Source: Calvatia gigantea (taxonomy: Eukaryota > Basidiomycota > Agaricomycetes > Agaricales > Lycoperdaceae). From it: a stretch of DNA of 64,000 nucleotides. Below, piece after piece: positions 1 through 61,785 of the stretch. The position numbers and the translations under genes are program-made. The notes below the pieces were generated by a model. It was not told where the DNA came from and did not search any database. It saw nothing but the letters and a program-made list of their open reading frames with translations. The stretch spans positions 1,860,001 to 1,924,000 of the forward strand of contig JACAAK010000006.1 in the NCBI GenBank assembly GCA_025093985.1. The letters are read 5' to 3'. Each line of letters begins with the position of its first letter. Within the stretch, counting starts at the first letter, position 1.

Positions 1-3880
<3,880 letters not shown>

Positions 3881-6364: not shown

Positions 6365-7289
6365 TTAGCGCTGAGCGCTGAGCACCTGTCCCTTCAATTC
6401 AGAACGTACTCGATGGTACGTCAAATTCCCTTGGGCAATGCAAGGGAATGCACGATAAACCTGCCACTCTCTTTCTTCTAGTATGGTGAACATCTCGTTC
6501 CTCAAATCTTCCAACCCTGCTCGAAGGGCCTCAAAGTCTGATTTGGAGGCCAGTTCTAAGTTGTAGGTTGTCAATTTGTATAGGAAATCTCAACTGAATG
6601 GGATTCCGCACCATGAAGAGCAAAGTATTGCGGTACCCTCTGTTCCTCGGGATCAGAAGAGATCGTAGTTCCCGTTTTCAGATTATCAATACATCGGAAT
6701 AAACGCGAGCGGATTAGCCCATTAACGTGAATTCCTGCCGCAATTATGGTGTGCCAAACTTCCGAGGTGGCTTCGTCTGCGTCCCTGCCACCAGCTGCCC
6801 TGATATCTATTCCGTGCGTGAAGAGCCACGGGGTTGGATTTCCCGGAGCGAATCCAGTGGTAGGAGCTTCGTTATTCTCTCCAATTCCAGAGTGGCCGCC
6901 CTTTGTTTCCAGCACAACCTCACACGTCCGTCTGTCGAGAATATCAAGGCGTTTGACAAGGACAGCTTCACGAGGGCTGCGGTTCTCACGGAGGCGTGTG
7001 TAGGAAGGATCGCTGAATGTCAAGGTTGAATCAACGTCATAGAGGGCGATCCAAGCTGGTTTCTCCCGGTCGCTAGCTACGTAACGGGCGCCAGTCAAGA
7101 ATGCTGACAGATGGTTGAGGCGAAGGGGAACATGCTCATTGTTGTACCAATCTGATTAGATAGAGAAAGCTTGTGAGTAAAGAGGCCGTATTCATGAATG
7201 AGTAATCAAAACCATCGCAGCTCACCATGAAACTCATCCAATGGGACTTGCCCAGGTTCAGACAGGACCGCAAGAAAGCCTTTAGTCAT
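6365..7289 (-). CDS. EthD-like / dimeric alpha-beta barrel protein
   Basis: Three exons on the minus strand (7289-7226, 7151-6612, 6555-6365) sum to 795 nt, 264 residues, with GT...AG at both introns. The protein starts MTKGFLAVLSEPGQVPLDEF and continues DWYNNEHVPLRLNH..FLTGARYVASD..PAWIALYDVD. The block 'EFHDWY..EHVP.R' with the following 'W.ALYDV' is what basidiomycete proteins annotated with EthD or dimeric alpha-beta barrel folds look like. A second half (SEVWHTIIAAG, RLFRCIDNLKTGT, QYFALHE) looks like a second, diverged copy of the same fold. The molecular role is unknown; a small-molecule or oxygenase-type function would be inference. It lies opposite to its neighbours, between paralogs 1 and 2. 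The last exon reads ELASKSDFEALRAG and ends with a short polar tail. Confidence 0.75.
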
Positions 7290-7948
7290 TGGCAAGAGCA
7301 GATGACAGCGCCCAACACCAGGGGGGTGAGAGAAAACGCGAAAAAGTCCCCAGCGATCCGGCACTCGGGCCGCTCCTCGCATTCGAATTTGTTGCGTCCC
7401 GTGTTTTGCGATTTCTCTTTGAAACGCCCTGGCCCGTCAGTGGTACTCAGGATCAGGCTATCTCGTTGATCAAACACGTTGATCACCTGTCTAGTGGTCT
7501 AAAATCTCTCGGCCAGGTCTGGTCCTTCGATATGTTGCCAAACCGGTGCGGCCAGTTCTGTGACTCTTTGCATCATTGGAGAAGCCAAGCCGGGTCTAGT
7601 CCGAAAACGGCATACAAGCGTTCTAAGCGATTAGAAGTCCTCACTCAGAGAGGGCCCGAAACCTTTGGGATTCCTTAAGGTTACCCCGCGCGGTAATCTT
7701 TGGCTGCATGCCCTTGTGGTTTCCATCCGAGGACATTTATCGAAGGCTGCGAGTCAACGGTGGTCAAGCACAAACGAAAATAAACGTCTCGGCGGACCGG
7801 CCCAACATTCATTGAATGCACGATTAATCAGACATCCATGATACCGGAATTCGGAATTCAGCGAAGAAGGCGACTCCACACCCGCCAGTGTTAAAGTAGA
7901 CGGGGGGAGGCTGGACTTGGTCACCCCTCGCTGCGCCCTGCCACCAAC
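7290..7948. other. divergent intergenic region
   Basis: This is the likely shared upstream region of the EthD-like gene (-) and membrane-protein paralog 2 (+). A 129-codon open frame crosses 7289-7678 (+), but it overlaps the start of the EthD gene and has no recognisable motifs, so I do not call it. Confidence 0.45.
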
Positions 7949-9269
7949 ATGTCCAGTGGTATACTAAATCCCAACAACTATCTTAGCCATTTATCTCCAG
8001 CAGACGCCTTTCAATACGAAGTCGCTCGCAATCTCTACCTGGCTGTTCTTGGGGTTCGTGGTCGTGTTGGGCAGGTTAGTGAGACTGCTAATGACACCAT
8101 GTCCGGCACCACAGGCTACGATATGGGATATCCTCGTTTACATACCGGACGACATTAAGATTCTACGAATGCGAAGGGGCATTAGAGCAGTTAATGTTTG
8201 CTTCGTAACCTCGAGGTGTGCTTTCTCTCCTCTCGTTCCCCTACAAGAGCTAAAATCTGAATAGGGTTTTCGCACTGTGTTATGTTCTGCTTTCCATGCT
8301 GGCGAAAAGTAAGGTATACAAGGTCCTTAATCATCGGGGTGCTAATCACCAAACTTGCTTCTAGCCATCCCCGTGGACAATTGTGACCCTCTTTTCATCA
8401 GCATAGGTTGTTGTTGCATCCTTTCCATCTTGTCATCGTCCTTTCTTTTCCTTCGCCGTGTCCAAGCTGTCTATGCCGATAATCGCTGGGTATCCCTTTT
8501 CTTTTTCGTATTATGGCTCGTCGACGGCGGTCTGGAGATTACGGTACCCCTCGGCGTACGCGCGACTCACATTCCGGGCACAAAGTACTGCATCGATTCG
8601 GAACCTGAGCATTACGTGATTGTTGGAGGATTCATCCCTGTCGTCTTCGACACTTTTGTTTTTCTCGCGATTTCGTACAAAATAGGGACTGCACATAGTA
8701 TCCAGGATGCGAGGGTATCCTGGAGCACGCTGGTTTCAGGAAAAGCACTTCCTCGGCTTTCACGGGCTGTTTTACAAGGGGGTCAACAGTATTACTTGTA
8801 GGTCTCCGTTTGTTCTATCGTTCGACTTCAGGCTATATCATAACTGACTGCTGCGTACAGAATCACCGCTGGCGTTTACATCATTCTTACCGTCCTCCTT
8901 GGTCTTCCATCCATTCCGCCTATTTATAGGAACATGTTCGCGTTCCCTTCCGTGTCTCTAACAGCTTCCATGGCATGCCGAGTGTACAGAAACATCATGC
9001 TCCTCGACCATAAGGCCGAAACCATGGGACTCCCCGTATCCGACCTCCGTTTCGCAGGAGAAGTCCGTGTCCAAAAACACTCAGAAAGTTCCCCTTTCTC
9101 ATCATTGTCGGCGTCAACGGAGCTTCAAACCCGATTCAGGAGCATCGCTTCTTCAAATACGCTCGACGTCCACACAGCTACCGAAACGCAAAACGGGGAA
9201 AAGACTGCAGAGCTCCAAATACCCGAGCGTTCGCTGGTGAACGAAAGGCAGCCAAAAAATGATTGGTGA
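7949..9269 (+). CDS. DUF6533-like multi-pass membrane protein, paralog 2
   Basis: Five exons (7949-8053, 8115-8215, 8265-8308, 8365-8797, 8861-9269) sum to 1092 nt, 363 residues. It starts MSSGILNPNNYLSHLSPADA, matching the paralogs in register. It shares YIPDDIK, SSSFLFLRRVQAVYADNRW, ATHIPGTKYC, PVVFDTFVFLAISYKI and VLQGGQQYYL. The last exon carries one further hydrophobic segment (GVYIILTVLLGLPSIPP), then SLTASMACRVYRNIM and a polar C-terminal tail of about 90 residues, longer than in paralogs 1 and 3. Intron positions and phases agree with the other two genes, so the three arose by tandem duplication. Intron 1 uses the less usual donor GTTCGT. The function is unknown; it is a membrane protein by hydrophobicity. 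Confidence 0.82.
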
Positions 9270-19830: not shown

Positions 19831-20985
19831 AGTTAGGGATCATCATGGGTGACCCTCAGGTCACAATCTATGTACCCAGACCCTTATCTGGTCACTATCC
19901 ATACCTGAAGGCAAGGGTCAGGATATTTGTGGGTACAGGTCTGGGATACTAGCAGATTAGGCAGGTTAATGTGGGTTAATACAGGTTAGGTGGGTATATA
20001 GCAACCTATGCAGGTCACCAGGTTTTATTGTACTTAATTACAAATATACTATGAATATATCTACAAATCTACTTTATCCAAGTTACATGGGAGGGTCTCG
20101 TACTCAGCCTCAACTTCAGGAAGGCTGGCAGTGGCCAATAAATCTTTATTCTTAATTATTCCCTGTAAACTCCAGTCACCAAGGCATAATAGTGTATGTA
20201 TGGACTGAATATTGAGGCAGTTCCAGATGTGAGAGAGAAGGAGTCTTCCCTTGCTGAAGACCCTCTCAACCCCAACAGATAATGCTACATAAACCATAGT
20301 TGAATATGAGCATAACTCAAAGAGTCAACAAAACAACTTACCAGGTATTGAAAGGAAGTCAATTGCCATGCACAAGAGGTGTGGATAAATGTGGGTGTGA
20401 TGATGCCACTACACAATAGCATCTTCAGCTGTGTGATTGCAATTCATTTGAAGGTAATGGTCCAGCTTATTATAGGCCTCATCAGCACCAAGACCCAAAG
20501 CCTCCTCAGCAAAGAGGTTATTGAAGTAGTTTGTAGATTGTACTGAGGGCAGGGACTCTGAGTAGCAGACCTGGTTTAGTTATCATTAGTAGTACTGTCA
20601 TAGAGTGAACTACATATATGCACTGTCAAAGAAGCTGTAGTGGACAAGTCCTGGGACTTGTATAATCTTATACATTACTTGTGAACTATATCAACTGCAG
20701 TTTCAATCCACTCAGGCTCCCACTTGAGTGTCTTGAAATACTGGGTCTTGTTTTGAGAGTGTAAGACTAGAGGGATACCAACTTCAGTTAGTGGGTGTTT
20801 GTACTAAGTTCAGAGGACTTACTCATTGCTGTATGATATACCTCCAAATCATCTGTCTTGCTATAGTATCAGTTCAATGTTCATTGGCCCATCTGTAAAG
20901 CAGCTCTAAGAGGGGCGGAATAAGTGTGAGTAGTAGATGTTGTAGCCAGGATCTTGTCTATTGTGGATTTCACCATCTTCATTGC
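19831..20985 (-). mobile_element. hAT transposon relic, copy 1
   Basis: On the minus strand, 20297-20061 encodes ALSVGVERVFSKGRLLLSH followed by LCLGDWSLQGIIKNKDLLA, a hAT-family C-terminal dimerisation (HATC) segment. Upstream pieces read LCMAIDFLSIPG, KTQYFKTLKWEPEWIETAV and YYSKTDDLEVYHTAMS, which also fit hAT transposases, with stops and gaps between them. At 19840-20020, beyond the transposase end, repeated GGGTCAGG, ACAGGTCTGGG and GGTTAATACAGGTTAGG motifs look like a hAT subterminal region. The element is dead. The segment 20072-20630 recurs almost unchanged at 27523-28073. Confidence 0.7.
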
Positions 20986-21507: not shown

Positions 21508-21553
21508 AGCTATAAAGCAACCTGAGGTCTAAACCGACTAAGGTCGTAACATT

Positions 21554-21564
21554 TGGTTAAGCGT
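21554..21564 (+). promoter_or_regulatory. primer-binding site, self-priming type
   Basis: TGGTTAAGCGT lies 3 nt after the LTR end at 21551. Its reverse complement matches ATGCTTAACCA at 27430-27440 in the 3' LTR at 10 of 11 positions, and the mismatch allows a G-U pair in RNA. That LTR site lies 34 nt downstream of TATTTAAG, where transcription would be expected to begin. Confidence 0.65.
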
Positions 21565-21632
21565 CATCACCTCACCTTGCAGGAAGCAGAGTTGAAAAAG
21601 ACTCAAACCACGACGAACCCGGGAGCCATTAT

Positions 21633-22781
21633 ATGAGCTCGAACCCCGACGAATATAGAGAACCGCAGCTTGAAGTTACAGACAACGAACTTGAAACAGA
21701 CAGCGAAACCGAGTCATCAGACGAAGAAGCAGAGAACCCCGAAGTACCTGCACCAGAAACGGTTGTAACAAGCAACGAACCCGGAGAAACCACACAAGGA
21801 GTAAACCCAACAGGAGTAGAAGCAGTTATATCAGAACTCTTTGACGAACTCGACATAGCAGAAGAACAGTTAGGACGACAGGAGAACCTAGACACCGAAA
21901 CAGAATCAGAATCAGGAGGCTCAGAAATGACAGACAATACCGCACCCGCCACAGCACCTAGTACAAAGGGACTCGTGCCTGACCCAGGGTTCTTCGATGG
22001 AACACGAACCAAATTCGACGACTGGTGGAGAGCCATGACACTCTTCATGAAATTCAACAAAGTCAGCATGGCAGATGATAAAGCTATAGCAGTCCTGGCC
22101 AGACTGAGAGGAGAAACAGCAGGAGCATATGCAGCAATGAAAGCACCACAAATCCTGGAAGGAGAAGATTCTGTAGACTGGAAAGTTTTTGCAGAAGAAT
22201 TCAAACGGACCTTCTCAGACGATGCCATGAACGCGAAGGCGGAATGGCAGATCGAAAAATTCAAACAAGGGAATAGGAACACGGCCGACTACCTCATCGA
22301 ATTTGAGGTACTAAAAAACAAGGCCAAAACTGACAACCGACACGCCATGTTCCTATTACGAAAAAACGCCCGACAAGATATTATCCACACCATCACAGGC
22401 TACCCTCCAGCCGCGCAACCTGATACGTACCCAGAATGGAAGGAAGCCATACTAGCAGTTGGACAAGGATACGAAGCATCCGAATACTGAGGAGATAAGA
22501 AAACTAACTCGGGAACTACTTATGGAGGAATGGGAGAGCCCATGGAGATAGGAAGCAGGCGACATGTGTTCAACGCAAAAGGGGAACCCAAATGCTATAA
22601 CTGCGGAATATTCGGACACATGTCCAAAGACTGCAAGAAACCCAAAGGGTTAACATGCTACAACTGCGGCAAAATCGGACACGTAGCCAAAGCATGCACT
22701 ACACCAAAGAAAGTACAGATCCGAGCAATGGATGAAGCGAAACCAGAGGAACGCCAGGATTTTTCCGGAGACTCCGAGTAG
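21633..22781 (+). pseudogene. gag of element A1
   Basis: The frame starts MSSNPDEYREPQLEVTDNE with an acidic N-terminus. A retrotransposon gag (capsid) domain follows from about residue 110 (FDGTRTKFDDWWRAM...FSDDAMNAKAEWQIEKFKQG). Two CCHC zinc knuckles close the protein (CYNCGIFGHMSKDC and CYNCGKIGHVAKAC). One in-frame TGA at 22488-22490 follows EASEY; other copies have an Arg codon there. The frame ends TAG at 22779-22781. Gag forms the particle and binds the element RNA. Length would be about 380 residues without the TGA. Confidence 0.88.
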
Positions 22782-25700
22782 GCGCTGCCTCGAGAGTCAA
22801 GAAACTTGTATCTAGGATATCAGAAGAATATTACACGATTCCTCAGAAACGAAAGCGTGAACTAAACCTAAAAGGAAAAATCCAGACCCCGACAAAAAGA
22901 ATAACAGTAAACACTATAGTCGACTCGGGATGCACCACCAGCAGCATCAGCAAAAGACTGGTAGATGAAGAAAAAATCCCCACAGAAAAACTAGGACAAG
23001 AAATCACGGTACTTAACGCGGACAGCACGGCAAACCAAGGAGGAAAGGTCACGGAAATGGCGACTATACAAATGGAAATTGAAGGACACAAAGAAACGAT
23101 CGAAGCGTCGGTCGTACAACTCCAAGACAGAGCAGAAGTATTCCTAGGACACGACTGGCTCACCAAACACAACCCAGAAGTAAACTGGCGAACAGGAGAA
23201 ATAAAGTTCAATCGATGCCCAAAGGACTGCAAAATTCCACACCAAAGCATCCAGGTAACTGACAAAATCCGAAGCACGATCACCACCGAGGATATATGGG
23301 AAGAGGAAGAAGAGCCCGACCCCACCGAGCCATCAGACCTGCCAGACTATGTACGACCATTCACACATTTGTTCAACAAGACGAGCTCAAGACATTTGTT
23401 AAAGAAAACCTCGAATCAGGACAAATACGACCATCGAAATCACCATATGCCGCACCCACCTTTTTCATCCCAAAGAAGGATGGCTCAAAATGACTCATTC
23501 AAGATTACCGACGATTGAATAACATAGTCATCAAGGATAAAACACCGTTGCCTCGAATCGGAGAGGTCATTGACAAGTTAGGAAAAGCCAAATATTTCAA
23601 CAAACTAGACATCATTTGGGGTTACAACAACGTCCAAATCAAAGAAGGAGACGAGTGGAAAGCAGCCTTCCTAACCAACAAAGGGCTATTCGAACCCACG
23701 GTAATGTTTTTCGGTCTCAGTAATTCACCTGGAACATTCTCAAGAATGATGGCAAGCATCTTCTGAGACCTGTTACGCGACGGAGACATAGTAAACTATA
23801 TGGACGACTTCGCAATCCCAGGAGACACCAAGGAACAATTACGAGAACGAACCATCCGATTCCTAGAAAGAGCAGCCGAACACAACCTGTGCTTTAAACG
23901 ATCCAAATGCATCTTCGATGCCGAAGAAATCCCAATGCTAGGAGTAACAGTAGGACACGGACGCATTGAAATGGAGGCTGAAAAAGTAAAATCGGTACGA
24001 GAATGGCCCCAACCGCACAACAAGAAAGGAATAGAAAGATTCCTTGGTTTTGCCAACTACTACCGCTGATTTATAAAGAACTTCAGCAAGATAGCGGCCC
24101 CACTAAACAAACTGAAAGGGTCAGAGGAGTGGGAATGGGAAGAGGAACAACAATCGGCATTTGACGAACTAAAGCAACGAATCACAGAAGAACCCACCTT
24201 AACACTACCCCAGAGAAAAGGTCAATTCTGAGTAGAAGTCGACGCATCAAACTACGCACTAGGGGGAGTACTCTCACAAGAACAAAATTCAAAATGGCAC
24301 CCAATCGCATTCACGTCCCGCATGCTATCACCAGCAGAATGAAATTACGAAATCTACGACAAGGAACTATTGGCCATCATGCATGTACTAAAGGAATGGC
24401 GACACTACCTACTAGACGCAGAAGAGAAATTCGAAATTTGGACCGACCATGAAAACCTGAAATACTATAGAGAACCCCAAAAACTGAACGGCCGACAAGC
24501 GAGATGGTACCTACGGTTACAAGACTATGACTTCACACTGTGCCATGTACCGGGAAAATCAAACACAAAAGCGGACCTCCTTTCCAGAATCTACCAAGAG
24601 CCAGAACAGGAAGAAGAGAAACTAGTCACCATGATCCGAGATACTTGGCTAACAAACAAAAAAGACGATGAACCATCAGAAGGGACCATATTACTCCGCG
24701 CCGAACTGTTTATGGAACCCACCCTCAAAGAACGAATCAAGGCGAACAAAGGACGAGAAACGACCGTCATCCAAAAAATACGCGACCAAGACCCTGACTT
24801 CACCGAACACGACGGAATAATCTACAAGAATACCAGCATGTATGTACCACCCGAACCAACGCTCAGAGAAGAAATACTACACCAATACCACGATGCCCCT
24901 GATGCAGGGCACCCGGGACAACACCGAATGATCAAGTTGGTGACTAGAGACTACTGGTGGCCAGCAATCCGAATGGACGCTCAAAAGTACATCAGAGGAT
25001 GCCAAAACTGTCAATGGAATAAGCCACGCAAGACACCTCTAAAGACACCTCTACACCTGCTTCCCATCCCCAACGGTCCATGGGAAGAAGTGAGCATCGA
25101 CCTCATTGGGCCACTACCCGAATCAGAGGGAAAGGACGCTATCCTAGTCATTGTCGACCGGTTCTCAAAAATGATACGACTCATAGCGACAAAGACAGAT
25201 ATTTCCTCAAAAGAGCTAGCACAGCACTACCGAGATGAAATATGGAAGCTACACGGAATACCAAGGAAAGTCCTTAGTGACCGAGGACCACAGTTTGCAT
25301 CCGAATTCACCGGCGAACTGTTCAAAGGACTAGGGATAGAACGGAACCTATCAATGGCCTATCACCCACAGACCGACGGACAGACAGAGAGGATTAACAG
25401 AGAAGTCGAGACATACCTGAGGATATACTGTAACTACGACCAAAATGACTGGACGAAATGGTTACCCATGGCCGAATTCCAATACAACGACAAGAAGCAC
25501 ACCGGCACTCAGATGACACCATTCTACCTAAACTACGGAAGACACCCCTGGAAAGGAAAGGAAAACGGAACGACGAACAACCCTAGCAGTACGGAGTTCC
25601 TAAAACAACTCCAGAATACAAGAAACAATGCCACCTCCACACTACGATCATATCAGGAAAAGATGAAACGGACACATGATAACAGCAAGATGAACACGAG

Positions 25701-26202
25701 GACATATCAGATCAACGATGAAGTATGGCTAGAAAACACCAACATCCATACCAATCAGTCATCAAAGAAGCTAGGCCAAAAAAGGTATGGGCCTTTCCGC
25801 ATTAAGGAAAAAATAGGGGAAGCGGCATATCGGCTGGCGATACCAGAAGGATGGGCCATCCATGATGTGTTTAACGAACAGTTACTAACCCCGGCACAAA
25901 AAACATCATTCCACATCCAGAAAAAAGCGCCAGCGCCCGAACCAATGATCATCAACAATGAAGAAGAATACGAAGTAGAAGAAGTCCAAGGGAAACGACG
26001 AAAAGGAAGGGGATATCAATTCCTTATACACTGGAAAGGATATGACAACGAAGAAGATACGTGGACAGCAGAGTCAAATTTGCAAAACGCCCGAGACGCG
26101 ATAGCGGAGTACCATAAAAGGCATCCGGAGGATACCTATAAAAAAGGGGGCAAGAAATCCAGAAAAACATCAGTCAAGTCAAGCCCCAGACAAAGAAACT
26201 AG
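22752..26202 (+). pseudogene. pol polyprotein of element A1 (PR-RT-RH-IN-chromodomain)
   Basis: The frame is -1 relative to gag and overlaps its end. Protease has VDSGCTTSSISKRLVDEE (DSG). RT has IWGYNNVQIKEGDEWK, then FGLSNSPGTFSRMM and YMDDFAIPG. RNase H has [14 protein letters not shown] and YDKELLAI. Integrase has a zinc finger (H..H..C..C around 24884-25015) and the catalytic core [32 protein letters not shown] (D, D, E). The chromodomain is near 25990-26130 (YQFLIHWKGYDNEEDTWTAE). Breaks are a deletion plus frameshift near 23380 between PR and RT, and TGA codons at 23491, 23764, 24067, 24229 and 24340, all at positions where sister copies carry Arg or Gln (CGA or CAA). From 24343 to 26202 the frame is uninterrupted. 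Confidence 0.9.
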
Positions 26203-26208
26203 CCAAAC

Positions 26209-27195
26209 ATGTCCTCCCAAGCCAACCGCATCTCTATCAACTCCCTCGTCCACCCCAACCTGACTACGATATCCTCAGTCCCCCTCTCAAAGCCAGGCAA
26301 TAGCCAAGCACCCGCACCCCAAGGCACCCGTTACAACCTCGCAACCACCCCGTCCCCAGCACAAGGACTCCTTGAGGCCCTCCTCAAAGACGTCAACAAA
26401 GCCACAAACGACGAAGTAGAAACAATCACGGCCCAAAACAAATGACTCGCAGTAAACCGCCATATCACCCTCGCCACTGCTTGCATCACCTTCGCGGACA
26501 TGTATGCCGGGTTCGCCAACGCATTGTCCTCCACAAGCCAACACATCCCCGCCATCTTCCGCGTGTTAGAATTATCCACCCTCACACCCAGCGAACAAAG
26601 TCGAGTTCACAGCCTTCAGAGCCGTGTTGACCTCGCTCTAGAGGTATTCAACCACCTAGACATCGCCGACACCTTCCTAGAACTCGCAGACGTCGCTATG
26701 AACTTACTAGGACGCGACAAGACCACAGAAGACCCAGACATCGATCAACTCGTTACACGCATTGGAGTCACTCTCGCCGACCTACACACCACCATCCGCT
26801 CCCCACCAACCAAACGAGCAGACACACCCATGGATGAAGAAACCACCGTCTCAATGAAGGAAGAAGTCAATGCACTCCGACGATTCATAAAGACCATCAC
26901 CCCACCACAGATCGTATCGGTTTTTCTCCCACCAGCAAGATTCCACAGTGTACTACCAGGCCAAGAAAAGGACCAACATTATTGGAAAACGATAGTCAAG
27001 AACTACTGGGACAACTCAACCATCACCGAGTTCCCCTTCAACGGAGTCCCAGTCCCTATCTGTCAAGATGGCCGAAGCCACTTGCCCATCTTCTTCGCAC
27101 GCTCCAACGAAGGAAAGTACCTCATCGGAGCCACCAAGAAAGCCCTCGCCGCCGCCGTAGTCAATGGAGAGTTTGACGAACTTCCTGAGGCATGA
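26209..27195 (+). CDS. third ORF (ORF3) of element A1, unknown function
   Basis: The ORF starts 6 nt after the pol stop, in the same frame, and ends 18 nt before the 3' LTR; full length would be 328 residues. The N-terminal third is Pro/Ser rich (SSQANRISINSLVHPNL). The middle is predicted helical (ELADVAMNLLGRDKTTEDPD). The C-terminal third contains PPQIVSVFLPPARFHSVLPG and FPFNGVPVPICQDGRSHLPI. One TGA at 26443-26445 follows AQNK; copy C5 has TGG there. I see no membrane span, signal peptide or fusion-peptide-like segment, so it is not an obvious envelope protein. Homologous ORFs occupy the same place in A2 (45966-43373), C5 (61785-60795) and C3 (start only). I do not recognise a family. 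Confidence 0.8.
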
Positions 27196-27213
27196 AGTCT
27201 GATTTGGGGGTAT

Positions 27214-27522
27214 TGTTATGAGTTTTCACCGATCATAACGAGTTCCGTGCCATTCTACATTCCTAACTATCTGCGTACCTGTTTCATGTTATTCTAGTCC
27301 AGCGTTCTCCAAAGATATGACTCGTATCGACTACCATGCCTTGACCGGACGTTTCATGTAGTTACTCCATCCGTTCAACCGGATAGTTCTAGACGTATTT
27401 AAGCGTACATACACCCTGTTGTATTCGGTATGCTTAACCACCTTCTGTTCTCCTTCCCTTACTCGCCCTCAAGACTTAGCCAGAGCTGCAACCTGAGGTC
27501 TAAACCGACTAAGGTCGTAACA
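27214..27522 (+). repeat. 3' LTR of element A1
   Basis: 309 bp, TGTTATGAG...GTCGTAACA, with TGTTA/TAACA ends. It is the reverse-orientation relative of the A2 LTRs. A TATA-like TATTTAAG lies at 27396-27403. Confidence 0.88.
27396..27403 (+). promoter_or_regulatory. TATA-like element of the A-type LTR
   Basis: TATTTAAG, 34 nt upstream of ATGCTTAACCA, the site complementary to the PBS. The C2 LTR keeps the same motif (38859-38866) and the same spacing. Confidence 0.5.
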
Positions 27523-28073
27523 TTTATCCAAGTTACATGGGAGGGTCTCGTACTCAGCCTCAACTTCAGGAAGGCTGGCAGTGGCCAATAAATCTTCATT
27601 CTTAATTATTCCCTGTAAACTCCAGTCACCAAGGTGCAATAGTGTATGTATGGACTGAATATTGAGGCAGTTCCAGATGTGAGAGAGAAGGAGTCTTCCC
27701 TTGCTGAAGACCCTCTCAATCCCAACAGATAATGCTACATAAACTATAGTTAAACATGAGTATAACTCAAAGAGTCAACAAAACAACTTACCAGGTATTG
27801 AAAGGAAGTCAATTGCCATGCACAAGAGGTGTGGATAAATGTGGGTGTGATGATGCCACTACACAATAGCATCTTCAGCTGTGTGATTGCAATTCATTTG
27901 AAGGTAACAGTCCAGCTTATTATAGGCCTCATCAGCACCAAGACCCAAAGCCCTCTCAGTAAAGAGGTTATTGAAGTAGTTTGTAGATTGTGCCAAGGAC
28001 AGGGACTCTGAGTAGTAGACCTGGTTTAGTTATCATTAGTAGTACTGTCATAGAGTGAACTACATATATGCAC
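27523..28073 (-). mobile_element. hAT transposon relic, copy 2
   Basis: Nearly the same sequence as 20072-20630, including the HATC region, with differences that are mostly transitions. It abuts the A1 3' LTR exactly on the left and a B-type LTR on the right. Confidence 0.75.
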
Positions 28074-28082
28074 TGTTGAGGA

Positions 28083-28626
28083 TGTTGAGAGAACGAGTAG
28101 ACATCCCAATATAAGTTCACACTACCTAAGCGTGTAGGCGTCAGCGGTGGAGGGTAGTTGTATTCATCTGGGAGACAGTCCAGTAGGAGAGGCGCATGGT
28201 AGCGGACATAGTCCTGCTTATACCAGCGTACTCAGAGAGTCTTGAGGAGAGGGGAAGCGATGCTTAGAGAAGCTAGTGTAGAGGAATGAAGACATAGTGT
28301 CTTACGCCAAAAGGCGTAGCTGAAGGGCATACATACTACAATGCTACATAGGGTATATATACTAATATCCCTGGTCTGTGCACTCTAAACCCTTATACGG
28401 GTGAGGTCTAACTACCAGTAGCATAATTGGAGCATACTGTGTATGACGCATGTACTAGAAGGTTCCATGCGGAGGGTATAACTGACTACCAGAAGGGCAG
28501 TACAACTACTGCGTACGTAGTCTGTGATGGTCCATTATTATTGACCCTCTGAAGGTGAAATACTCGAACCCTGTTTCAGCTATAAATAGACTGAACCAAC
28601 ATAGTGGTATGGAGCGAGATTCAACA
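28083..28626 (+). repeat. B-type LTR, copy 1
   Basis: 544 bp from TGTTGAGAGAACGAG to GAGATTCAACA, with TGTTGA/TCAACA ends. A 9-bp near-repeat of its start (TGTTGAGGA) precedes it. About 14 differences from copy 2 were counted by eye, all transitions. There are no coding frames. A TATA-like CTATAAATAG lies near the 3' end. Confidence 0.82.
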
Positions 28627-30600: not shown

Positions 30601-33239
30601 CTCAGCGACGAGTAGTTTCAATTTAAATGTCAACTGCGCATTGTTAATGGCGGATCATTATCGATGCAATTCCAGAAATAAAAGTATTTTTCTCGCAAGT
30701 TTGTTAAGCTATGTGAGGCGAAAGCTCATATGGAGGTATAACCATCACATTTTTTTTAGGATAATCTATCCGAGCTGTTGCGCTTTTCTGGTAGACGCTA
30801 GCGTGAATGCATAGCAAGTCTTATGCTTGTCCAACTCTAGTCGGTGAGTCCAAACGAGTTCTTCTTGAAATTAAACGCCTAATCCATTATAGTCTACCTG
30901 TAGGTGACCTGCATAATGAACAGTGCGGTCTTTCCTAGTCAGGTTCAATTGTGCAATGTGTATCAACCAGCATTTTATTCTATAACTCCTCCACAATGGT
31001 CGTTCCACATAAGTGGCGACACAGAAGTGTGGTGTGTCAAAAGCGGTAGATATTCTATAAAGGATGTGCATATTATGCATTAAATTGGCAAATATGTCAG
31101 CATAAGACATAGGATATGGTGGGCAGAGATTTCTCGAATGGAAATGGAAAGGAATCAGGAGGTGATCATAGAGTTAAATGGAATACATCCTGCGACATCA
31201 ATAGATGGCGGATGAAGAAGTGTAGCCACTTCTTGCTTCATGCAGGTTTTGCTCTCTTCTTTGCAAATGAACTGGTTACTGCTATCCAGTTACTGAATCA
31301 TGATGTTTTAAGGGTATATTCCCTCATCGAGTAAGGCATCCAAAAGTGGATTGTTCGTAGAACATTAAGCCTTTCTGTATGCCGCTTGAACTCAAAGTTC
31401 TCGTTGATCAAACGATCGAGGTATGTTACATCCCGAATAAGCGATCATGTTTGGGCGGTCATCATGTTAACTGATGCGCCGCGAAGTCAAACCCACAGTA
31501 CAGAACCAAATTAATGGTTTATCCCTTGATTTACACAATTAAGTGTCTTCCACTATAAATGCTTGGACTGGCGTGTTACGCTCTAGTCAACGCTTAAGCT
31601 ATCACTGAGACGGGTAAGACATTCCCATTGCCATAAAGCTTTTAGGCTCTCAAAGTGTAGTGCGGATCAGTCTCTCTACGTCAACCGTTGCGAAAGCATT
31701 GGGAGTAGGAGGTTTAAGTGGGTTATTCATGCCACGAATGTTTGCTATTGCTCTTGTTTAAACAAACTCTCCTCCATATTCAGTTGCGACAGTGGCCATT
31801 GTCAGCTATACTGTAGAGGTTTCTCTAATGAATCTTAGAGCCTCATAACTTCTTTCAAAGGAGGACAACTATCATCATGAGATGAGAAGTCATAGAGTAG
31901 CATCGTATTTGACGACTAGCAATTCCATCAAGTCCAAGTATTCCACTCAAGGATGAGGATATTCGTATAAGAAATTCTGGATAAAGGTACTAATGCAATT
32001 TCCCTTGTGAAGTAATCCAGAGTGGCGATGAAATAATGCAACGTTTCGACAAGTTGTAAAAGACGAGTGGAGAAGACATAATCATGGGAAGTTCTGTTCG
32101 ATGATGTTAAATGATATAGTCTAGTAGGCGTAATTTTCAACAACCATTCATCTCCTTGCTTGTAATGCAAGTTCGTGTACAACGATGAGATTGGGTGAAC
32201 TAATACAGCTCTGCATGACTTATTGCAAAGGTGGTGACCTTCAACGATTGCCTCAAAAGCATTACACTCGAGGACATACGTTGTAAGATTTTCTCGATAT
32301 AGATCAGCCGCACACTAATGTGGCACTACAAATCTTTATCCCTAATATCATAGACAAATGCTGGAATATAAAAGCAGTTCAGATACTTGTCGTTCCCATA
32401 GGATTCCAGTTTCTTGCCTCAAGCCTAATGTAAAGCGGCGAGGTCTAAGAATTAAATCTGGTGACATAGTGCTGAAGCTCAACCGTTATACGTTGGGAGC
32501 TATTCTGCTAATTCCTAGACGTGTCGTAATTTCCTTTCTTTGTAATGATGCAATTCATGAGATCCTGTAAAGGATATTCTTCTCAAATGAATAGAGCAAC
32601 ATGCTCCCACTATCATCTTCATATAACCTGTAAGGATTTCTCACTTGTTGTGTAGAAAAGGATTTATAGCCAGCGCTTACATCTCATGCGGCACACTGTT
32701 ATTCGTAGCATTTATCAAGGAGTATGAAGTCGAAAGTACTACCGTATATCCTTCCATTGGTATCAAGGTCAGTGACATCTGAGGATGGCAACTCAAGAAC
32801 TCCTCTGGCGCAAAGCTCTGTAAAGAGCGGTCAAAAGGATTTCTTAAGGGATTCATCGGCATGTTGCATTGTATGGTGCTAAACACATCCTCTTTCTCGA
32901 TCATAGTTGCTAAATGGTGCGCTCGAGTCCTGATAATGGACAGCGACTTCCATGAAGTCAAACTTCCTTAAAGCAATCATTGTCTTCCTGTAGTTGGTGG
33001 ACAAAGCATTTTAATGTGCTCGTCCATGCTCTGACTTAAAACAGGTCTTCAAACTTGGGCGCGTGGACATGCGCTTAACACAAGTGAAGGAATGTTGATG
33101 CTAGGAGCAGGGCGTGATATATAGCAACGCAGCTCTTCTATAAGAGAAATAGTATATGGCGGCAATCGCTCAAGCCAGCGACATATTTAAACTATATTCT
33201 GAAGTATTTCCTGAAACGACATAATGGCGGTATTACCAG
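30601..33239. repeat. 2.64-kb tandem duplication, unit 1
   Basis: The unit begins near CTCAGCGACGAGTA and runs to GGCGGTATTACCAG. It is followed head-to-tail by unit 2 with the same order of sequence throughout. Small frames inside, for example 32677-32961 (-), are partly kept in both units but have no recognisable motif. Confidence 0.75.
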
Positions 33240-35890
33240 CTCTCAGCGACGAGTATTTCAATTTAAATGTCAACGCGCATTGTTAATGGCGGATCATTAT
33301 TGATGCAATTCCAGAAATAAAAGTATTTTTCTTGCAAGTTTGTTAAGCTATGCGAGGTGAAAGCTCATATGGAGGTATAACCATCACATATTTTTAGGAT
33401 GATGTATCTGAGCTGTTGCGCTTTTCTGGTAGACGCTAGCATGAATGTGTAGCAAGTCTTATGCTTGTCCAACTCTAGTCGGTGAGTCCAAACGAGTTCT
33501 TCTTTAAATTGAACGCCTAATCCATTATAGTCTGCCTATAGGTGACCCGTGTAATGAACAGTGCGGTCTTTCCTAGTTAGGTTCAATTGTGCAATGTGTA
33601 TCAACCAGCATTTTATTCTATAACTCCTCCACAACGGTCGTTCCACATAAGTGGCAACACAGAAGTGTGGTGTGTCAAAGGCGGTAGAAATCCTATAAAG
33701 GATGCGCATATTATGCATCAAATTGGCGAATATGTCAGTGTAAGACATAGGATATGGTGGGCGGAGATTTCTCGAATGGAAATGGAAAGGAATCAGGAGG
33801 TGATCATGGAGTGTAATGGAATATATCCTGCGACATCAAAGGATGGCGGATAAAGAAATTGCTATCTCTTGCTTCGTGCAGGTTTTGCTCTCTTCTTTGC
33901 AAATGAACTGGTTTTACTGCTATCCAGTTGCTGAATCATGATGTTTAAGGGTATATTTCCTCATCGGATAAGGCATCCAAATGTGGATTGTTTGTAGAAC
34001 GTTAAGCCTTTCTGTGTGCCGCTTGAACTCGAAAGTTCTCATTGATCAAACGATCGAGGTATGTTACATCCCGAATAAGCGATCATGTTTGGGTGGTCAT
34101 TATGTTAACTGATGCGCCGCGAAACCAAACCCACAGTACAGAACCAAATTAATGGTTTATCCCTTGATTTACACAATTAAGTGCCTTCCACTATAAACAC
34201 TTGGACTGGCGCGTTACGCTCTAGTCAACGCTTAAACTATCACTGAGATGGGTAAGACATTCCCGTTGCCATAAAGCTTTTAGGCTCTCAAAGTGTAGTG
34301 CAGATCAGTCTCTCTACATCAACCGTTGCAAAAGCATTGGGAGTAGGAGGTTTTAAGTGGGTTATTTATGCCATGAATATTTGCTATTGCTCTCATTTAG
34401 ACAAACTCTCCTCCATAATCAGTTGCGACAGTGGCCATTGTCAGCTATACTGAAGAGGTTTCTCTAATGAATCTTAGATCCTCATAACTTCTTTCGAAGG
34501 AGGACAACTATCATCATGAGATAAGAAGTCGTAGAGTAGCGTCGTAATAGACAACTAACAATTCCATCAAGTCCGAGTATTATGCTCAAGGACGAGGATA
34601 TTCGTATGAGAGGATTCTGGATAAAGGTACTAATGCAGTTTCCCTTGTGACATAATCCAGAGTGGCAATGAAATAATGCAATCATCTCGACAAGTCATAA
34701 AAGACAAGTGGAAAAGGCATAATCATGGGAAGTTCTGTTCGATGATGTCAAATGATATAGTCTAGTAGGCGTAATGTTCAACAACCAGTCATCTCCTTGC
34801 TTGTAATCGCAAGTTCGTGTACAACGATGAGATTGGGTGAACTAATACAGCTCTGCATAACTTATTGCAAAGGTGGGTGACCTTTAACGATTGCCTCAAA
34901 AGCGTTACACTCAAGGACATACGTTATAAGATTTTCTCGATATAGATCGGCTGCACACTAGTGTGGCGCTACAAATCTTTCATCCCTAATGTCATAGACT
35001 AATGCTGGAATTCTGAAAGCAGTTCAGATACTTGTCATTCCCATAGGATTCCAGTTTCTTGCCTCAAGCCTAATGTAAAGCGGCGAGGTCTAAGAATTAA
35101 TTCTGGTGACACAGTGCTGAAGCTCAATCTTTATACATTGGGAGCTATTCTGCTAATTCCTAGACGTGTTGTAATTTCCTTTCTTTATAATGATGCGATT
35201 CACGAGATCCTCTAAAGGATATTCTTCTCGAGTGAATAGAGTGACATGCTCCCGCTATCATCTTCATATGATCTGTAAGGATTTCTCACTTGTTGCATAG
35301 AAAAGGATTTATAGCCAGCGCTTACATCTCATGCGGCACACCGTTATTCGTAGCATTTATCAAGGAGTATGAAGTCGAAAGTACTACCGTATATCCTTCC
35401 ATTGGTGTTAAGGTCAGCGACATCCGAAGATGGCGACACAAGAACTCCTCCGGTGCCTAGCTCCATAAAGAGCAGTCTAAAGGATTTCTTAAGGAATTCG
35501 TTGGCGTATTGCATCGTATGGTGCTAAACACATCCTCTTTCTCAATTATAGTTGCTAAATGGTGTGCTCAAGTCCTAATTGTGGACGGTGACTTCCATAA
35601 AGTCAAACTTCTTTAAAGCAATCATTGTTATTTCTGTAGTTGGCAGACAAAGCATTTTTAACGTGCTCATCCATGCTCTGACTTAAAACAGGTCTTCAAC
35701 CTTGGGCATGTGGACATGCGCTTTAACACAAGTGAAGGAACGTTGACGCTAGAAGTAGGGCGCGATATAAAGCGACGCAGCTCCTCTATAAGAGAAATAG
35801 TATATGGTGGCAATCACTCGAGCCAGTGGCATATTTTAACTATATTCTGAAGTATTTCCTGAAACAACATAATGGTGGTATTACTAGCTC
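33240..35890. repeat. 2.64-kb tandem duplication, unit 2
   Basis: Direct repeat of unit 1. Differences seen are mostly C/T and G/A transitions plus small indels. It ends near GGTGGTATTACTAGCTC. Confidence 0.75.
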
Positions 35891-36765: not shown

Positions 36766-37309
36766 TGTTGAGAGAACGAGTAGACATCCCAATATAAGTT
36801 CACACTACCTAAGCGTGTAGGCATCAGCGGTGGAGGGTAGTCGTATTCATCTGGGAGACGGTCCAGTAGGAGAGGCGCATGGTAGCGGACATAGTCCTGC
36901 TTATACCAGTGTACTCAGAGAGTCTTGAGGAGAGGGGAAGCGATGCTTAGAGAAGCTAGTGTAGAGGAATGAAGACATAGTGTCTTACGCCAAAAGGCGT
37001 AGCTGAAGGGCATACATACTACAATGCTACATAGGGTATATATACTAATATCCCTGGTCTGTGCACTCTAAACCCTTATACGGGTGAGGTCTAACTACCA
37101 GTAGCATAATTGGAGCATACTGTGTATGACGCATGTACTAGAAGGTTCCATGCGGAGGGTATAACCGACTACCAGAAGGGCGGTACAACTACTGCATACA
37201 TAGTCTGTGATGGTCCGTTATTATCGACCCTCTGAAGGTGAAATACTCGAACCCCATTTCAGCTATAAATAGACTGAACCAACGTAGTGGTACGGAGCGA
37301 GATTCAACA
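36766..37309 (+). repeat. B-type LTR, copy 2
   Basis: 544 bp, TGTTGAGAGAACGAG...GAGATTCAACA, the same length as copy 1. It is directly followed by C1 pol sequence (ACTTCAGCAAGATTGC), so its right end sits inside a Ty3/gypsy RT region. Confidence 0.82.
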
Positions 37310-41499: not shown

Positions 41500-42614
41500 G
41501 CACTACCTTGAGAGTCAGAAAGCTTGTATCTAGGATATCAGACAAATTCTACACGATTCCTCAGAGAAGAAAGCATGAACTAAACCTAAAAGGAAAAATA
41601 CAAACAGTGGAGAAGGAAATAACAGTGGACATGATTGTCGACTCAGGGTGTACGACCAGCAGCATCAGCAAAAAACTGGTAGATGAAGAAAAACTCCCCA
41701 CTTGAAAATTGGAACAACAGATCTTAGTACTAAATGTGGATGGGACACCAAATCAGGGCGGAAAAGTAATGGAAATGGCCACAATTGACATAGACATCCA
41801 AGGACACAAAGAACAGATCGAAGCATCAGTCATACAACTACAAGACCATACAGAGGTATTTCTAGGACATGACTGGCTGGTCAAACACAACCCGGAAGTA
41901 GATTGGAACAATGGAGAAATCAAATTCACCCAGTGCCCACAGAACTGCCAATTCCCCCACCGAAACATTTCCATTACAGAAAAGATATGAAGCATGGCCA
42001 CTACAGAAGATTTATGGGAAGAAGAAGATGAACCAGACCCAACCAAACTGGAGGATTTACTAGACTATGTACAACCATTCATGCATCTGTTCAACAAAAC
42101 AATGTTCAACAAACTCCCAGAACAAACTGAATAGGATCATGAAATAATCCTAACTGAGGATGCCCCGAAAGAAATAAGTGCAGGGACTTACAACATGATG
42201 GTCAAAGAACAGGACGAGCTCAAAGCATTTATCAAGGAGAACCTAGAATCAGGACAAATACGGCCATCAAAATCCCCATATGCAGCACCAACCTTTTTCA
42301 TTCCCAAGAAGGACAGATCAAAAAGATTAATTCAGGATTATAGGTGATTAAACAATGTGGTAATCAAGGACAAAACACCACTGCCAAGAATTGGTGAAGT
42401 AATTGACAAACTTGGAAAGGCCAAGTATTTCAACAAGCTCGACATCATCTGGGGATATAACAATGTTAGAATCAAGGAAGGAGACAAATAGAAAGCTGTG
42501 TTTCTCACCAATGAAGGGCTCTTTGAGCCAACAGTCATGTATTTTGGACTCAGCAACTCACCGGGAACCTTCTCCAGAATAATGACAAGCATCTTCTGTG
42601 ATCTACTGCAGAAT
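41480..42614 (+). pseudogene. pol of element C2 (protease to mid RT)
   Basis: Protease has VDSGCTTSSISKKLVDEEK, then FLGHDWLVKHNPEVDW. RT begins FFIPKKD.SKRLIQDYR and runs through DIIWGYNNVRIKEGD to SNSPGTFSRIM. Several stops (TGA, TAG) lie at conserved codons. It is truncated at an inverted junction at 42614/42615. Confidence 0.83.
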
Positions 42615-43047
42615 GGGAGGGAGGAGATTCTGGTGGGTGTGGGGTGAATGAGGGAGTCAATAGCAATACAGTTGGATTGGGTGGCAGGCATGTTTGTTTA
42701 GTTTCTCTGTCTGGGTTGTTTGTTTAATGCTTTTTTGTGTTTTCTGCCCCCTCTTTTATGGGTATCCTCCAGATGCCTTTTTAGGTAGTCTCTTATGGCA
42801 TCTTTTGCATTTTCCAAATTGGACTCCACTGTCCACATATCTTCTTCATTGCTGTATCTCTTCTAGTGGACCAGGAATTGATAACCCCTTCCTTGTTTTC
42901 GTTGTCTGCGGATCTCTTCCACTTTGTACTCTTCTTCATTGTTGATGATCACTGGGTCAGGCACTGATGGTTGTTTTTGACTTGGGAACTCTGCCTGGTG
43001 TACTGGTGTCAGAAGCTGTTTGTTGAATACATCATGGATGGCCCATC
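42615..43047 (-). pseudogene. element C3, pol C-terminus and ORF3 start
   Basis: Read on the minus strand, 43047 to about 42700 gives HDVFNKQLLTPVHQAEFPSQ and a chromodomain (YQFLVH, EDMWTVESNLENAKDAI); ORF3 then starts at 42691 (MPATQSNCIAIDSLIHP) and is cut at 42615. This is the part of C3 left of the A2 insertion. Confidence 0.82.
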
Positions 43048-43354: not shown

Positions 43355-44065
43355 ATACCCTCCGATTAGACTTCATGCCTCAGGAAGTTCGTTGAACTCT
43401 CCATTGACTACAGCTACAGCGAGGGCCTTCTTGGTGGCTCCGATGAGGTACTTTCCTTCATTGGAGCATGCGAAGAAGATGGGCAAGTGGCTGCGGCCAT
43501 CTTGACGGATAGGGACTGGGACTCCGTTGAAGGGGAACTCGGTGATGGTCGAGTTGTCCCAGTAACTCTTGACTATTGCTCTCCAATAATGTTGGTCCTT
43601 TTCTTGGCCTGGTAGTACAGTGCAGAATCTTGTTGGTGGGAGAAAAACCGATACGATCTGTGGTGGGGTGATAGTCTTTATGAATCGTCGGAGTGCGTTG
43701 ACTTCCTCCTTCATTGAGACGGTGGTTTCTTCGTCCATGGGCGTGTCAGCCCATTTGGCTGGTGGGGAATGGATGGTGGTGTGTAGGTCGGTGAGAGTGA
43801 TTCCGATGTGTGTAACAAGTTGGTCGATGTCTGGATCTTCTGTGGTTTTGTCACGTCCTAGCAAGTTCATGGCGATGTCTGCGAGTTCTAAGAAGATGTC
43901 GGCGATATCGAGGTGGTTGAATACCTCTAGAGCGAGGTCAACATGGCTCTGAAGGCTGTGAACCTGGTTTTGTTCACTGGGTGTAAGGGTGGATAATTCT
44001 AATGCGCGGAAGATGGCGGGGATATGCTGGCTTGTAGAGGATGATGTGTTGGTGAACCCGGTGTA

Positions 44066-44277
44066 CAGTAAGGGACAAAACCGTTCCAATGTTTTGAACT
44101 TTTCAGAAGATCAGCTCATAACTCAAGGACTACTGTGGCTGTGCACTTCCTAATTTAATTGTAGATAGTCCAGTATCTTATCTAATCATATGCAAAGTAT
44201 GATTATGTAATCCTTTGTTTTGGGGGAGTTATTAATTAATTAATATTTTAAGTACATTGGAACAGTTTTGTCCCTCT
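44066..44277 (+). repeat. left terminal inverted repeat of the Tc1 element
   Basis: 212 bp. The outer 44071-44092 (AGGGACAAAACCGTTCCAAT...) recurs inverted at its inner end (44254-44275), so each TIR can itself fold back. Confidence 0.88.
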
Positions 44278-45670: not shown

Positions 45671-45972
45671 TACATGTCTGTGAAGGTGATACAAGCAGTG
45701 GTGAGGGTGATGTGACAGTTTACTGCGAGTCATTTGTTTTGGGCCGTGATTGTTTCCACTTCGTCGTTTGTGGCTTTGTTGACATCTTTGAGGAGGGCCT
45801 TGAGGAGTCCTTGTGCTGGGGACGGGGTGGTTGCGAGGTTATAACAGGTACCTTGGGGTGTGGGCACGTGGCTGTTGCCTGGTTTTGGGAGGGGGACTAA
45901 GGAGATCATGGTCAGGTTGGGGTGGACGAGGGAGTTGATAGAGATGCGGTTGGCTTGGGAGGACATGTTTGG

Positions 45973-60794: not shown

Positions 60795-61785
60795 TCATGC
60801 CTCAGGAAGCTTCATCAAAGTCACCATTGACTACAGCAGAGGCGAGGGCTTTCTTGGTGGCTCCGATCAGGTATTTTCCATTGTTTGAGCATATGAAGAA
60901 GATGGGCAAGTGGCTTCACCCGTCCTGGCAGATAGGGACTGGGACACCATTGAATGGGAAGTCGGTTGTGGTGGAATTGTCCCAGTAGCTCTTGACTATT
61001 GTTTTCCAGTAGTGTTAGTCCTTTTCTTGCTCTGGTAACACAGTGCAGAATCTTGCAGAAGGGAGAAAAACCAATACAAGTTGCGGTGGAGTGATAGTTT
61101 TGATGAAGCAGTGGAGCGAGTTGACTTCTTCTTTTATGGAGACAGTTGTTTCTTCATCCATGGGCATGTTGGATCAGGTTGGTGGTGTGGGGTTGATCAT
61201 GGTGTGGAGTTTGGAGAGGGTACTGTGGATCCTGTCAATGAGGGCATCAATCTCTGGGTCTTCAGTGGTTTTATTGTGTCTGAGTAAGTTCATTGCTACA
61301 TTGGCAAGCTCTAGAAAGATGTCGGCAATATCAAGGTGCTTGAATACTTCTAGTCTGAGGTCGATGTGGTTGTGAAGGCTGTGGACACAGTCTTGTTTGC
61401 TGGGTGTGAGTGTGGATTGTTCTAGGGATTGGAAGATGGCAGGGATGTGCTGGTTGGTAGATGAGGAGGTGTTGGCAAACCCTGCATACATGTCAGCGAA
61501 GGTAATGCATGTGGTGGCAAGGGCAATGTGCCTGTTGATGACTAGCCACTTGTTCTGAGCAGTGATGGCTTCCATTTCACTGTTGGTGGCCTTGTCAACG
61601 TCTTTCAGTAGGGATTCAAGGAGCCCCTGTGCTGGAGATGGCATGGTGGTGAGGTTGTAATGAGTGCCCTGAGGGGCAGGTACTTGGCTGTTGCCTGGTT
61701 CTGGAAGGGGAATGGAGGAGATTGTGGTTGGGTTGGGATGGATGAGGGAGTGAATAGTGATGCAGTTGGCTTGGGAGGAAGGCAT
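60795..61785 (-). pseudogene. ORF3 of element C5
   Basis: It starts MPSSQANCITIHSLIHPNPT and is open for 203 codons to a TGA after NPTPPT (61174). The homologous frame continues to the stop at 60795-60797 with the conserved C-terminus. The codon that is TGA in A1 and A2 (after AQNK) is TGG here. Between A1 and C5 a sampled stretch (about 24 codons around LLKDV.KAT) has roughly twice as many silent as replacement codons, which supports past protein function. Confidence 0.82.

What the first reader, a model, noticed from the sequence alone, without database searches (positions are those of the whole stretch)
26209..27195. Conserved third ORF downstream of the chromodomain integrase in Tf1-like Ty3 elements
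All copies that retain this region (A1, A2, C5, and the start in C3) carry an ORF of about 330 codons between pol and the 3' LTR. It starts 6 nt after the pol stop in A1 and has no family I recognise. Between families A and C the protein is well kept while third codon positions differ freely, which indicates selection on the protein when the elements were active. It lacks visible membrane or fusion segments, so it is not a plain envelope gene. Tf1/Tf2 elements as usually described have no such ORF. It is the best candidate here for something undescribed.
Basis: partly seen in the sequence, partly recalled or inferred. Interest (0 to 1): 0.85.

Follow-up and report, generated by a model that had tools for sequence, protein, structure and literature searches.

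The report
Third gene in fungal chromodomain retrotransposons
A family of jumping elements in this (probably fungal) genome carries a real third gene, kept by selection right after the enzyme gene, whose protein resembles nothing we could find, so it is a genuine but functionally unsolved addition to a known type of element.

Summary
The ORF is real. At 26209-27195 lies a 328-codon frame (plus stop), 6 nt after the pol stop and 18 nt before the 3' LTR. All window copies are damaged (A1 has one internal stop, A2 is split, C5 has three stops, C3 only the start), but 74 of 150 scored matches in the same genome lack internal stops. Selection is strong and frame-specific: dN/dS 0.13 within family A and 0.12 between A and C, against 1.5-2.0 in the other frames, slightly above integrase of the same copies (0.123 vs 0.102). 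No relative was found in Pfam, NCBIfam, PHROGs, PDB sequences, a protein database, or viral and prokaryote contigs. No membrane segment; models are weak. Expression is most simply stop-restart after Pol, itself reached by a -1 frameshift at a conserved G_GAU_UUU. Two other chromodomain families of this genome, with their LTR pairs located, carry other ORFs between pol and 3' LTR, one sense, one antisense. Additional ORFs there are a known kind in plants, rotifers and fungi, so this is an apparently new protein family of a known kind; its function is unsolved.

The parts
26209..27195 (+). ORF3 of copy A1: 328 codons plus stop, with one internal stop at codon 79
26203..26208 (+). 6-nt spacer between the pol stop codon and the ORF3 ATG
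   Evidence: stop + 6 nt + ATG in 40 of 45 distinct start regions that matched the start pattern; the other 5 had no in-frame stop within 60 nt; purine at -3 in 45 of 45
24343..26202 (+). end of pol: RNase H, integrase, SH3_Tf2-1 domain, chromodomain, stop
22736..24342 (+). protease and reverse transcriptase part of pol, damaged in this copy
21633..22781 (+). gag with two CCHC zinc knuckles, one internal stop in this copy
   Evidence: Retrotrans_gag and zf-CCHC in Pfam
22757..22763 (+). candidate -1 frameshift site G_GAT_TTT between gag and pol; the gag stop follows after five more codons
   Evidence: same site and frames in 5 of 5 gag/pol junctions found in the window by BLAST
27196..27213 (+). 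18 nt with the polypurine tract between ORF3 stop and 3' LTR
   Evidence: sequence
27214..27522 (+). 3' LTR of A1 (TG...CA)
21552..21566 (+). primer binding site of A1, complementary over 9 nt to the presumed RNA start inside the LTR
43373..44067 (-). ORF3 of copy A2, 3' piece
45671..45966 (-). ORF3 of copy A2, 5' piece (internal stop; separated by an insertion)
60802..61785 (-). ORF3 of copy C5 (2 TGA and 1 TAA inside)
42611..42691 (-). start of ORF3 in copy C3, cut off

Best explanation
ORF3 is a genuine third gene of one lineage of chromodomain Ty3 retrotransposons: gag, then pol by -1 frameshift at G_GAU_UUU, then ORF3. Shown: conserved position and protein, no membrane segment, no family found. 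Inferred: ribosomes that finish Pol restart at the AUG 6 nt downstream, so ORF3 is made at or below the level of Pol. A protein made that sparsely and kept nearly as strictly as integrase is more likely a partner of the enzymes or of the pre-integration complex, helping reverse transcription, nuclear passage or target choice together with the chromodomain integrase, than a shell protein or a fast-evolving counter-defence. The helical middle would be a docking part and the C-terminal third a second domain. I put the stop-restart step at about 0.5 and the enzyme-partner role at about 0.3; that it is a working non-envelope gene at about 0.95.
For: Purifying selection in frame 0 only, close to integrase in 24 A-type copies, intact or not (0.123 against 0.102, 276 pairs). 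ORF3 fills the space between the pol stop (6 nt) and the 3' LTR (18 nt). Stop + 6 nt + ATG in 40 of 45 distinct starts from groups whose synonymous sites differ by dS above 1, with TAG in 29 and TAA in 11, and a purine at -3 in 45 of 45. Frameshift site in 5 of 5 junctions; G_GAU_UUU is the shift site of pea enation mosaic virus (PMC5009743, one passage). No hydrophobic segment. Stop-restart coupling is known in several viruses and in the retrotransposon SART1 (PMC5972666, passages).
Against: No transcript, protein or interaction data exist here. No conserved RNA structure supports a restart signal at the junction: 9 predicted pairs without covariation (16 sequences), and 5 of 5 single sequences show no clear excess stability (z from -0.73 to 1.44). 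ORF3 is a little less constrained than the polymerase part in each comparison made: 0.123 vs 0.102, and for single window pairs 0.194 vs 0.114, 0.137 vs 0.109, 0.129 vs 0.100. The part of ORF3 nearest the LTR has reduced dS, which could reflect recombination or an RNA signal. The fold is unknown (mean pLDDT 53.8 and 47.2), so the role as enzyme partner rests on presumed stoichiometry and constraint alone.
Confidence: 0.5

Rival explanations
1. ORF3 is expressed from its own spliced or subgenomic mRNA, as env and many additional ORFs are, and the 6-nt spacing is only heritage.
For: In bdelloid rotifers ORF3s of LTR elements are said to be expressed from spliced messages (PMC5408684, passage). 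In other chromodomain families of this genome the first ATG of the sense ORF after pol lies 61 nt (L089) or 171 nt (L085) after the pol stop (read), where strict coupling is less natural.
Against: The AG of TAG just upstream of the ATG is absent where the stop is TAA (11 of 45), so it is no conserved acceptor. No RNA data either way.
Confidence: 0.25
2. ORF3 is the readthrough end of Pol: a small share of integrase carries ORF3 as an extension beyond its chromodomain.
For: ORF3 lies in the same frame as the end of pol in 40 of 45 distinct starts, with one stop between.
Against: Both TAG (29) and TAA (11) occur, the base after the stop varies (C, A, G, T), an ATG with a purine at -3 is kept, and no conserved RNA structure was found.
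Confidence: 0.15
3. ORF3 is a counter-defence protein, for example against RNA silencing or heterochromatin.
For: No membrane segment, no known family, in a genome with many decayed copies (76 of 150 matches have internal stops, 69 of these 76 with a TGA, counted by hand).
Against: dN/dS nearly as low as integrase gives no sign of an arms race; no family match.
Confidence: 0.15
4. ORF3 is an envelope-like protein.
For: Position between pol and the 3' LTR only.
Against: Best 19-residue hydropathy mean 1.12, two cysteines in 328 residues in the copy tested.
Confidence: 0.04
5. Not a gene: an open frame by composition in a C/A-rich strand.
For: The strand has few T, so other frames are long too: up to 185 codons in frame +2.
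Against: Frame-specific dN/dS and conservation between groups with dS above 1.
Confidence: 0.01

Closest known systems
Additional ORFs of unknown function in fungal Gypsy elements (Novikova et al. 2010, PMC2864245)
   Same: An 'add. ORF' of unknown function is listed in the legend of the structure figure of full-length elements from fungi (section 5 read).
   Different: The figure itself is not held; the section gives no protein, position or selection data, so identity with this ORF3 cannot be tested here.
Sense and antisense additional ORFs of plant LTR retrotransposons (PMC7264820; Retand, PMC11963269)
   Different: Different hosts; most Retand clusters have antisense ORFs with a TRP28 domain, whereas ORF3 here is sense, next to the pol stop, and has no known domain.
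ORF3s of bdelloid rotifer LTR retrotransposons (PMC5408684)
   Same: Several unlike genes occupy the place after pol in elements of one genome (passages).
   Different: There GDSL esterase, DEDDy exonuclease and fusion proteins were recognised; here none was.
brtn, antisense gene of Boty-like elements of Botrytis (Zhao et al. 2011, seen only as a reference and a methods passage in PMC8365987)
   Same: Extra gene in a fungal LTR element.
   Different: Antisense; comparable to the antisense ORFs noticed in L090, L086 and L088, not to ORF3. No sequence comparison was made.
Tf1/Tf2 of fission yeast
   Same: SH3_Tf2-1 plus chromodomain integrase and a self-priming-like primer site.
   Different: Gag and pol in two frames with a -1 shift site; third ORF present (single frame and no third ORF in Tf1 are recalled).

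Membership tests
[quoted passage not shown]
Additional ORF between pol and 3' LTR (sense type) | present in many copies, not a one-off capture | tested here: met
   150 of 150 scored candidates match (797 candidates in all), in two groups; 122 of 122 scored (878 in all) with a C-type query
Additional ORF between pol and 3' LTR (sense type) | selected as a protein | tested here: met
Envelope-like protein | transmembrane or fusion segment | tested here: not met
   highest 19-residue mean 1.12 in the copy tested
Chromovirus (chromodomain Ty3 element) | chromodomain at the integrase C-terminus | tested here: met
   PF00385 E 4.3e-13
Tf1 clade | SH3_Tf2-1 domain in integrase | tested here: met
   PF24626 E 3e-14; the domain is also in distant families of this genome, so it is not specific
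Tf1 clade | single gag-pol frame (recalled) | tested here: not met
   gag and pol overlap in different frames at a G_GAT_TTT site
Tf1 clade | self-priming by the first nucleotides of the RNA (recalled) | tested here: inconclusive
   9-nt match in A1 (5 of 500 shuffles as good), 8 nt to the 5' LTR of A2 (28 of 500), 9 nt to its 3' LTR; an 11-nt match read for the copy at 38981; RNA start not mapped
Tf1 clade | phylogenetic placement of RT and integrase | not tested
   no tree with named fungal elements was built
FAT-type helical bundle | shared fold | tested here: inconclusive

The most novel reading that the evidence does not exclude
Chromodomain retrotransposons of this genome have a retrovirus-like accessory-gene slot between pol and the 3' LTR that has been filled by at least three apparently unrelated proteins (the 328-aa ORF3; a roughly 600-aa sense protein ending in a Cys/His-rich stretch; and antisense ORFs), and ORF3 supplies a replication function that gag and pol of this lineage can no longer do without, such as guiding the chromodomain integrase.
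Probability: 0.3. Interest if true: 0.75.

Novelty: new member of a known kind. Interest (0 to 1): 0.5.

Why it matters
LTR retrotransposons are usually described as needing only gag and pol. A third gene kept nearly as strictly as integrase, in at least 150 copies of one genome, says that this lineage needs something more, and different ORFs in the same place in other families of the genome suggest that fungal chromodomain elements, like retroviruses and rotifer elements, have repeatedly taken on extra functions. It gives a defined protein family and a defined stop-start junction to test.

Tried and rejected
Known-family searches: Pfam for the 231-aa A1 piece and the 203-aa C5 piece, 0 families at E 1, and for 19 of 19 members of an ORF3 alignment at E up to 10 (only ZapA and CCDC138_cc, one member each, E 0.078 and 0.1); NCBIfam 0 and PHROGs best E 0.36; PDB sequences best E 0.052, chain 7rkc_A. 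All taken as chance.

Protein database: an intact ORF3 against 5.8 billion proteins, none of 2258 candidates at E 1e-3; the alignment of 19, none of 7234 at E 1. For comparison, the 605-aa sense ORF of another family found 3 relatives at 34-35% identity (7994 candidates scored), so the database does hold proteins of this sort. ORF3 contig scans: 55 pattern matches in viral contigs and 55 in prokaryote genome contigs, none confirmed (the tool may leave out records very near this genome). The other family's ORF: 5 pattern matches in viral contigs, none confirmed.

Overlapping gene in frame +2 of the 3' third: considered because dS is low there and the frame is open; rejected because frame +2 is open over other stretches too in this C/A-rich strand and dN/dS in that frame over all of ORF3 is 1.7-2.0. 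RNA structure at the junction: none supported. Relation of ORF3 to the other families' sense ORF: hhalign probability 0.4%. ORF3 as a second Gag: best BLASTP E 0.18. Other families: 0 of 10 loci has a tblastn match to ORF3 at E 1e-3, best 0.045.

Literature: searches showed no description of this protein; the library lacks most subscription journals and all figures, so an earlier drawing of the same ORF cannot be excluded.

Full report
What is there. The window is G000:C56:1860001-1924000 of a 46-Mb genome in 77 contigs; that it is a fungus is inferred from its elements, not tested. A1 is a Ty3-type element on the plus strand with gag (PF03732) and two CCHC knuckles, protease, RT, RNase H, integrase with SH3_Tf2-1 and a chromodomain. 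The integrase frame ends with TAG at 26200-26202; six nucleotides later ATG at 26209 opens ORF3, which ends at 27195; 18 nt with the polypurine tract follow and the 3' LTR begins at 27214. ORF3 therefore fills nearly all the space between pol and the LTR. In A1 the frame has one internal stop at codon 79; A2 has it split by an insertion, C5 has three stops, C3 only the start. Intact copies exist elsewhere in the genome.

How common and how well kept. A DNA search scored 40 of 646 candidates and all 40 matched. A protein search with the 231-aa piece scored 150 of 797 candidates; all 150 matched, from 100% down to 71% identity, 74 of 150 without a stop in the matched part; of the other 76, 69 have a TGA (counted by hand from its table). 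A second search with a C-type ORF3 gave 122 matches of 122 scored (878 candidates), most with internal stops. From 78 loci I took the frames of at least 315 codons, 27 after removing duplicates (one of them, L005, has a shifted end; shorter and broken ones were dropped): dN/dS is 0.132 in 231 A-A pairs, 0.115 in 110 A-C pairs and 0.125 in 10 C-C pairs, with dS 0.20, 1.19 and 1.01. Reading the same alignments in the other two frames gives 1.5-2.0. In 24 A-type copies that also hold 400 integrase codons, intact or not, integrase has 0.102 and ORF3 0.123 (276 pairs); for the window pairs A1-A2, A1-C5 and A2-C5 the RNase H-integrase part has 0.114, 0.109 and 0.100 and ORF3 0.194, 0.137 and 0.129. 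So ORF3 is nearly, not quite, as constrained as integrase. Closest pairs have a higher ratio (0.205 at dS 0.05-0.1, 15 pairs, against 0.099 at dS above 0.3, 22 pairs), as expected if selection acts during activity and stops after insertion. Choosing open frames removes nonsense but not missense changes, so it does not explain the low ratio.

Expression. Among 45 distinct start regions that matched a start pattern in 78 loci and the window, 40 have stop + 6 nt + ATG in frame (29 TAG, 11 TAA); the other 5 have no in-frame stop within 60 nt. A purine stands at -3 in 45 of 45. No RNA structure is conserved at the junction. Upstream, gag and pol overlap in different frames at G_GAT_TTT, with the gag stop after five more codons, in 5 of 5 junctions found in the window; L089, of another family, has GGATTTTTGA at its overlap. 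So on the full-length RNA a ribosome reaches ORF3 only after the frameshift and after finishing Pol. This favours a low-level product (inference). Stop-restart coupling is described for caliciviruses, influenza B, hypoviruses and SART1 (PMC5972666, passages).

What the protein is like. 328 residues, pI 5.9; residues 1-50 nearly without charge, 51-200 acidic and predicted helical, 201-328 mixed; two cysteines; no membrane segment (one intact copy). Between families dN is highest at codons 161-220 (0.23-0.29) and dN/dS lowest at 61-120 (0.06-0.07). Models from window pieces are weak except the helical part (block means mostly 64-85 pLDDT for ORF3 residues 80-199, one block 48), and fold searches were uninformative. 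No sequence relative was found in what was searched, although the same protein database does hold relatives of another family's post-pol protein.

Surroundings elsewhere in the genome. A search for SH3_Tf2-1 scored 150 of 937 candidates; 12 of the 150 lie in open frames of 1189-1262 codons. I fetched the stretch after pol for 10 of these 150. None of the 10 has ORF3 at E 1e-3. In L080, L081, L083, L084 and L085 (open or in pieces), and in pieces in L082, a long sense ORF follows or overlaps the end of pol. In L089 (the same place as L080, enlarged) the order is gag 48-2150, pol 2123-5908, ORF 5883-7787, then a 3' LTR at 7823-8442 that matches L091:1113-1732 at 99.7%; the protein ends in a Cys/His-rich stretch and has no Pfam match. 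In L079, L086 and L088 antisense frames of 200, 166 and 196 codons lie after pol (L087 was not examined on that strand), without a Pfam match at E 0.1 or better; in L090 (L079 enlarged) this frame, 5501-6100, lies between pol (to 5369) and a 3' LTR at 6795-7418 that matches L092:1366-1989 at 99.2%. So the place between pol and 3' LTR holds different ORFs in different families. I did not test selection on these other ORFs.

Comparison with what is known. [quoted passage not shown] passages) and rotifers (PMC5408684; passages), an 'add. ORF' of unknown function is named in the legend of the structure figure of fungal elements (PMC2864245, section 5 read, figure not held), and Boty elements carry an antisense gene (reference in PMC8365987, passages). 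PMC3248453 (passages) describes LTR elements as usually having two ORFs. So the kind is known; this protein family, its conservation and its position at the pol stop were not found described. The element is a chromovirus; I do not file it in the Tf1 clade, because gag and pol are in two frames and no tree was built.

Verdict. A real, selected third gene without envelope features and of unknown fold. Stop-restart expression is the simplest reading (about 0.5); a role as partner of the enzymes at integration or reverse transcription is my best guess (about 0.3).

Noticed in passing
L089:5883-7787 (same family: L080, L083, L084; related L081, L082, L085): Another chromodomain family has a roughly 600-aa sense ORF between pol and 3' LTR with a Cys/His-rich C-terminus, no Pfam match, and 3 relatives at 34-35% identity in the protein database.
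   Followed up: partly
L090:5501-6100 (minus), L086 pol-strand 1565-2062, L088 pol-strand 876-1463: A further family has antisense ORFs of 166-200 codons after pol (in L090 shown to lie before the 3' LTR), one with a KCATCVKGKRKC motif, possibly exons of one gene.
   Followed up: partly
window 22757, 41475, 56345 (+) and 54240, 49533 (-): Conserved G_GAT_TTT -1 frameshift site between gag and pol in 5 of 5 junctions found.
   Followed up: yes
window 21552-21566 with 27396-27440; 38981 with 38859; 50737 and 55416 (-): The primer site TGGTTAAG... is complementary over 8-11 nt to a stretch that begins 24-25 nt after TATTTAAG in 6 LTR copies, as in self-primed elements; in the copy at 38981 a change in the primer site is matched in its own LTR.
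   Followed up: partly
window 20073-20626 and 27523-28076; 28083-28626 and 36766-37309: Two pairs of direct repeats of about 550 bp (96.6% and 97.4%); the first flanks A1 so that its second copy begins exactly after the A1 3' LTR, which is unusual for a simple insertion.
   Followed up: no
window 30601-33242 and 33242-35890: Tandem duplication of about 2.65 kb at 92% identity.
   Followed up: no
ORF3 codons about 228-328: Synonymous divergence is lower in the 3' third of ORF3 than in its middle, in A-A, A-C and C-C pairs; recombination near the LTR or an RNA signal are both possible.
   Followed up: partly
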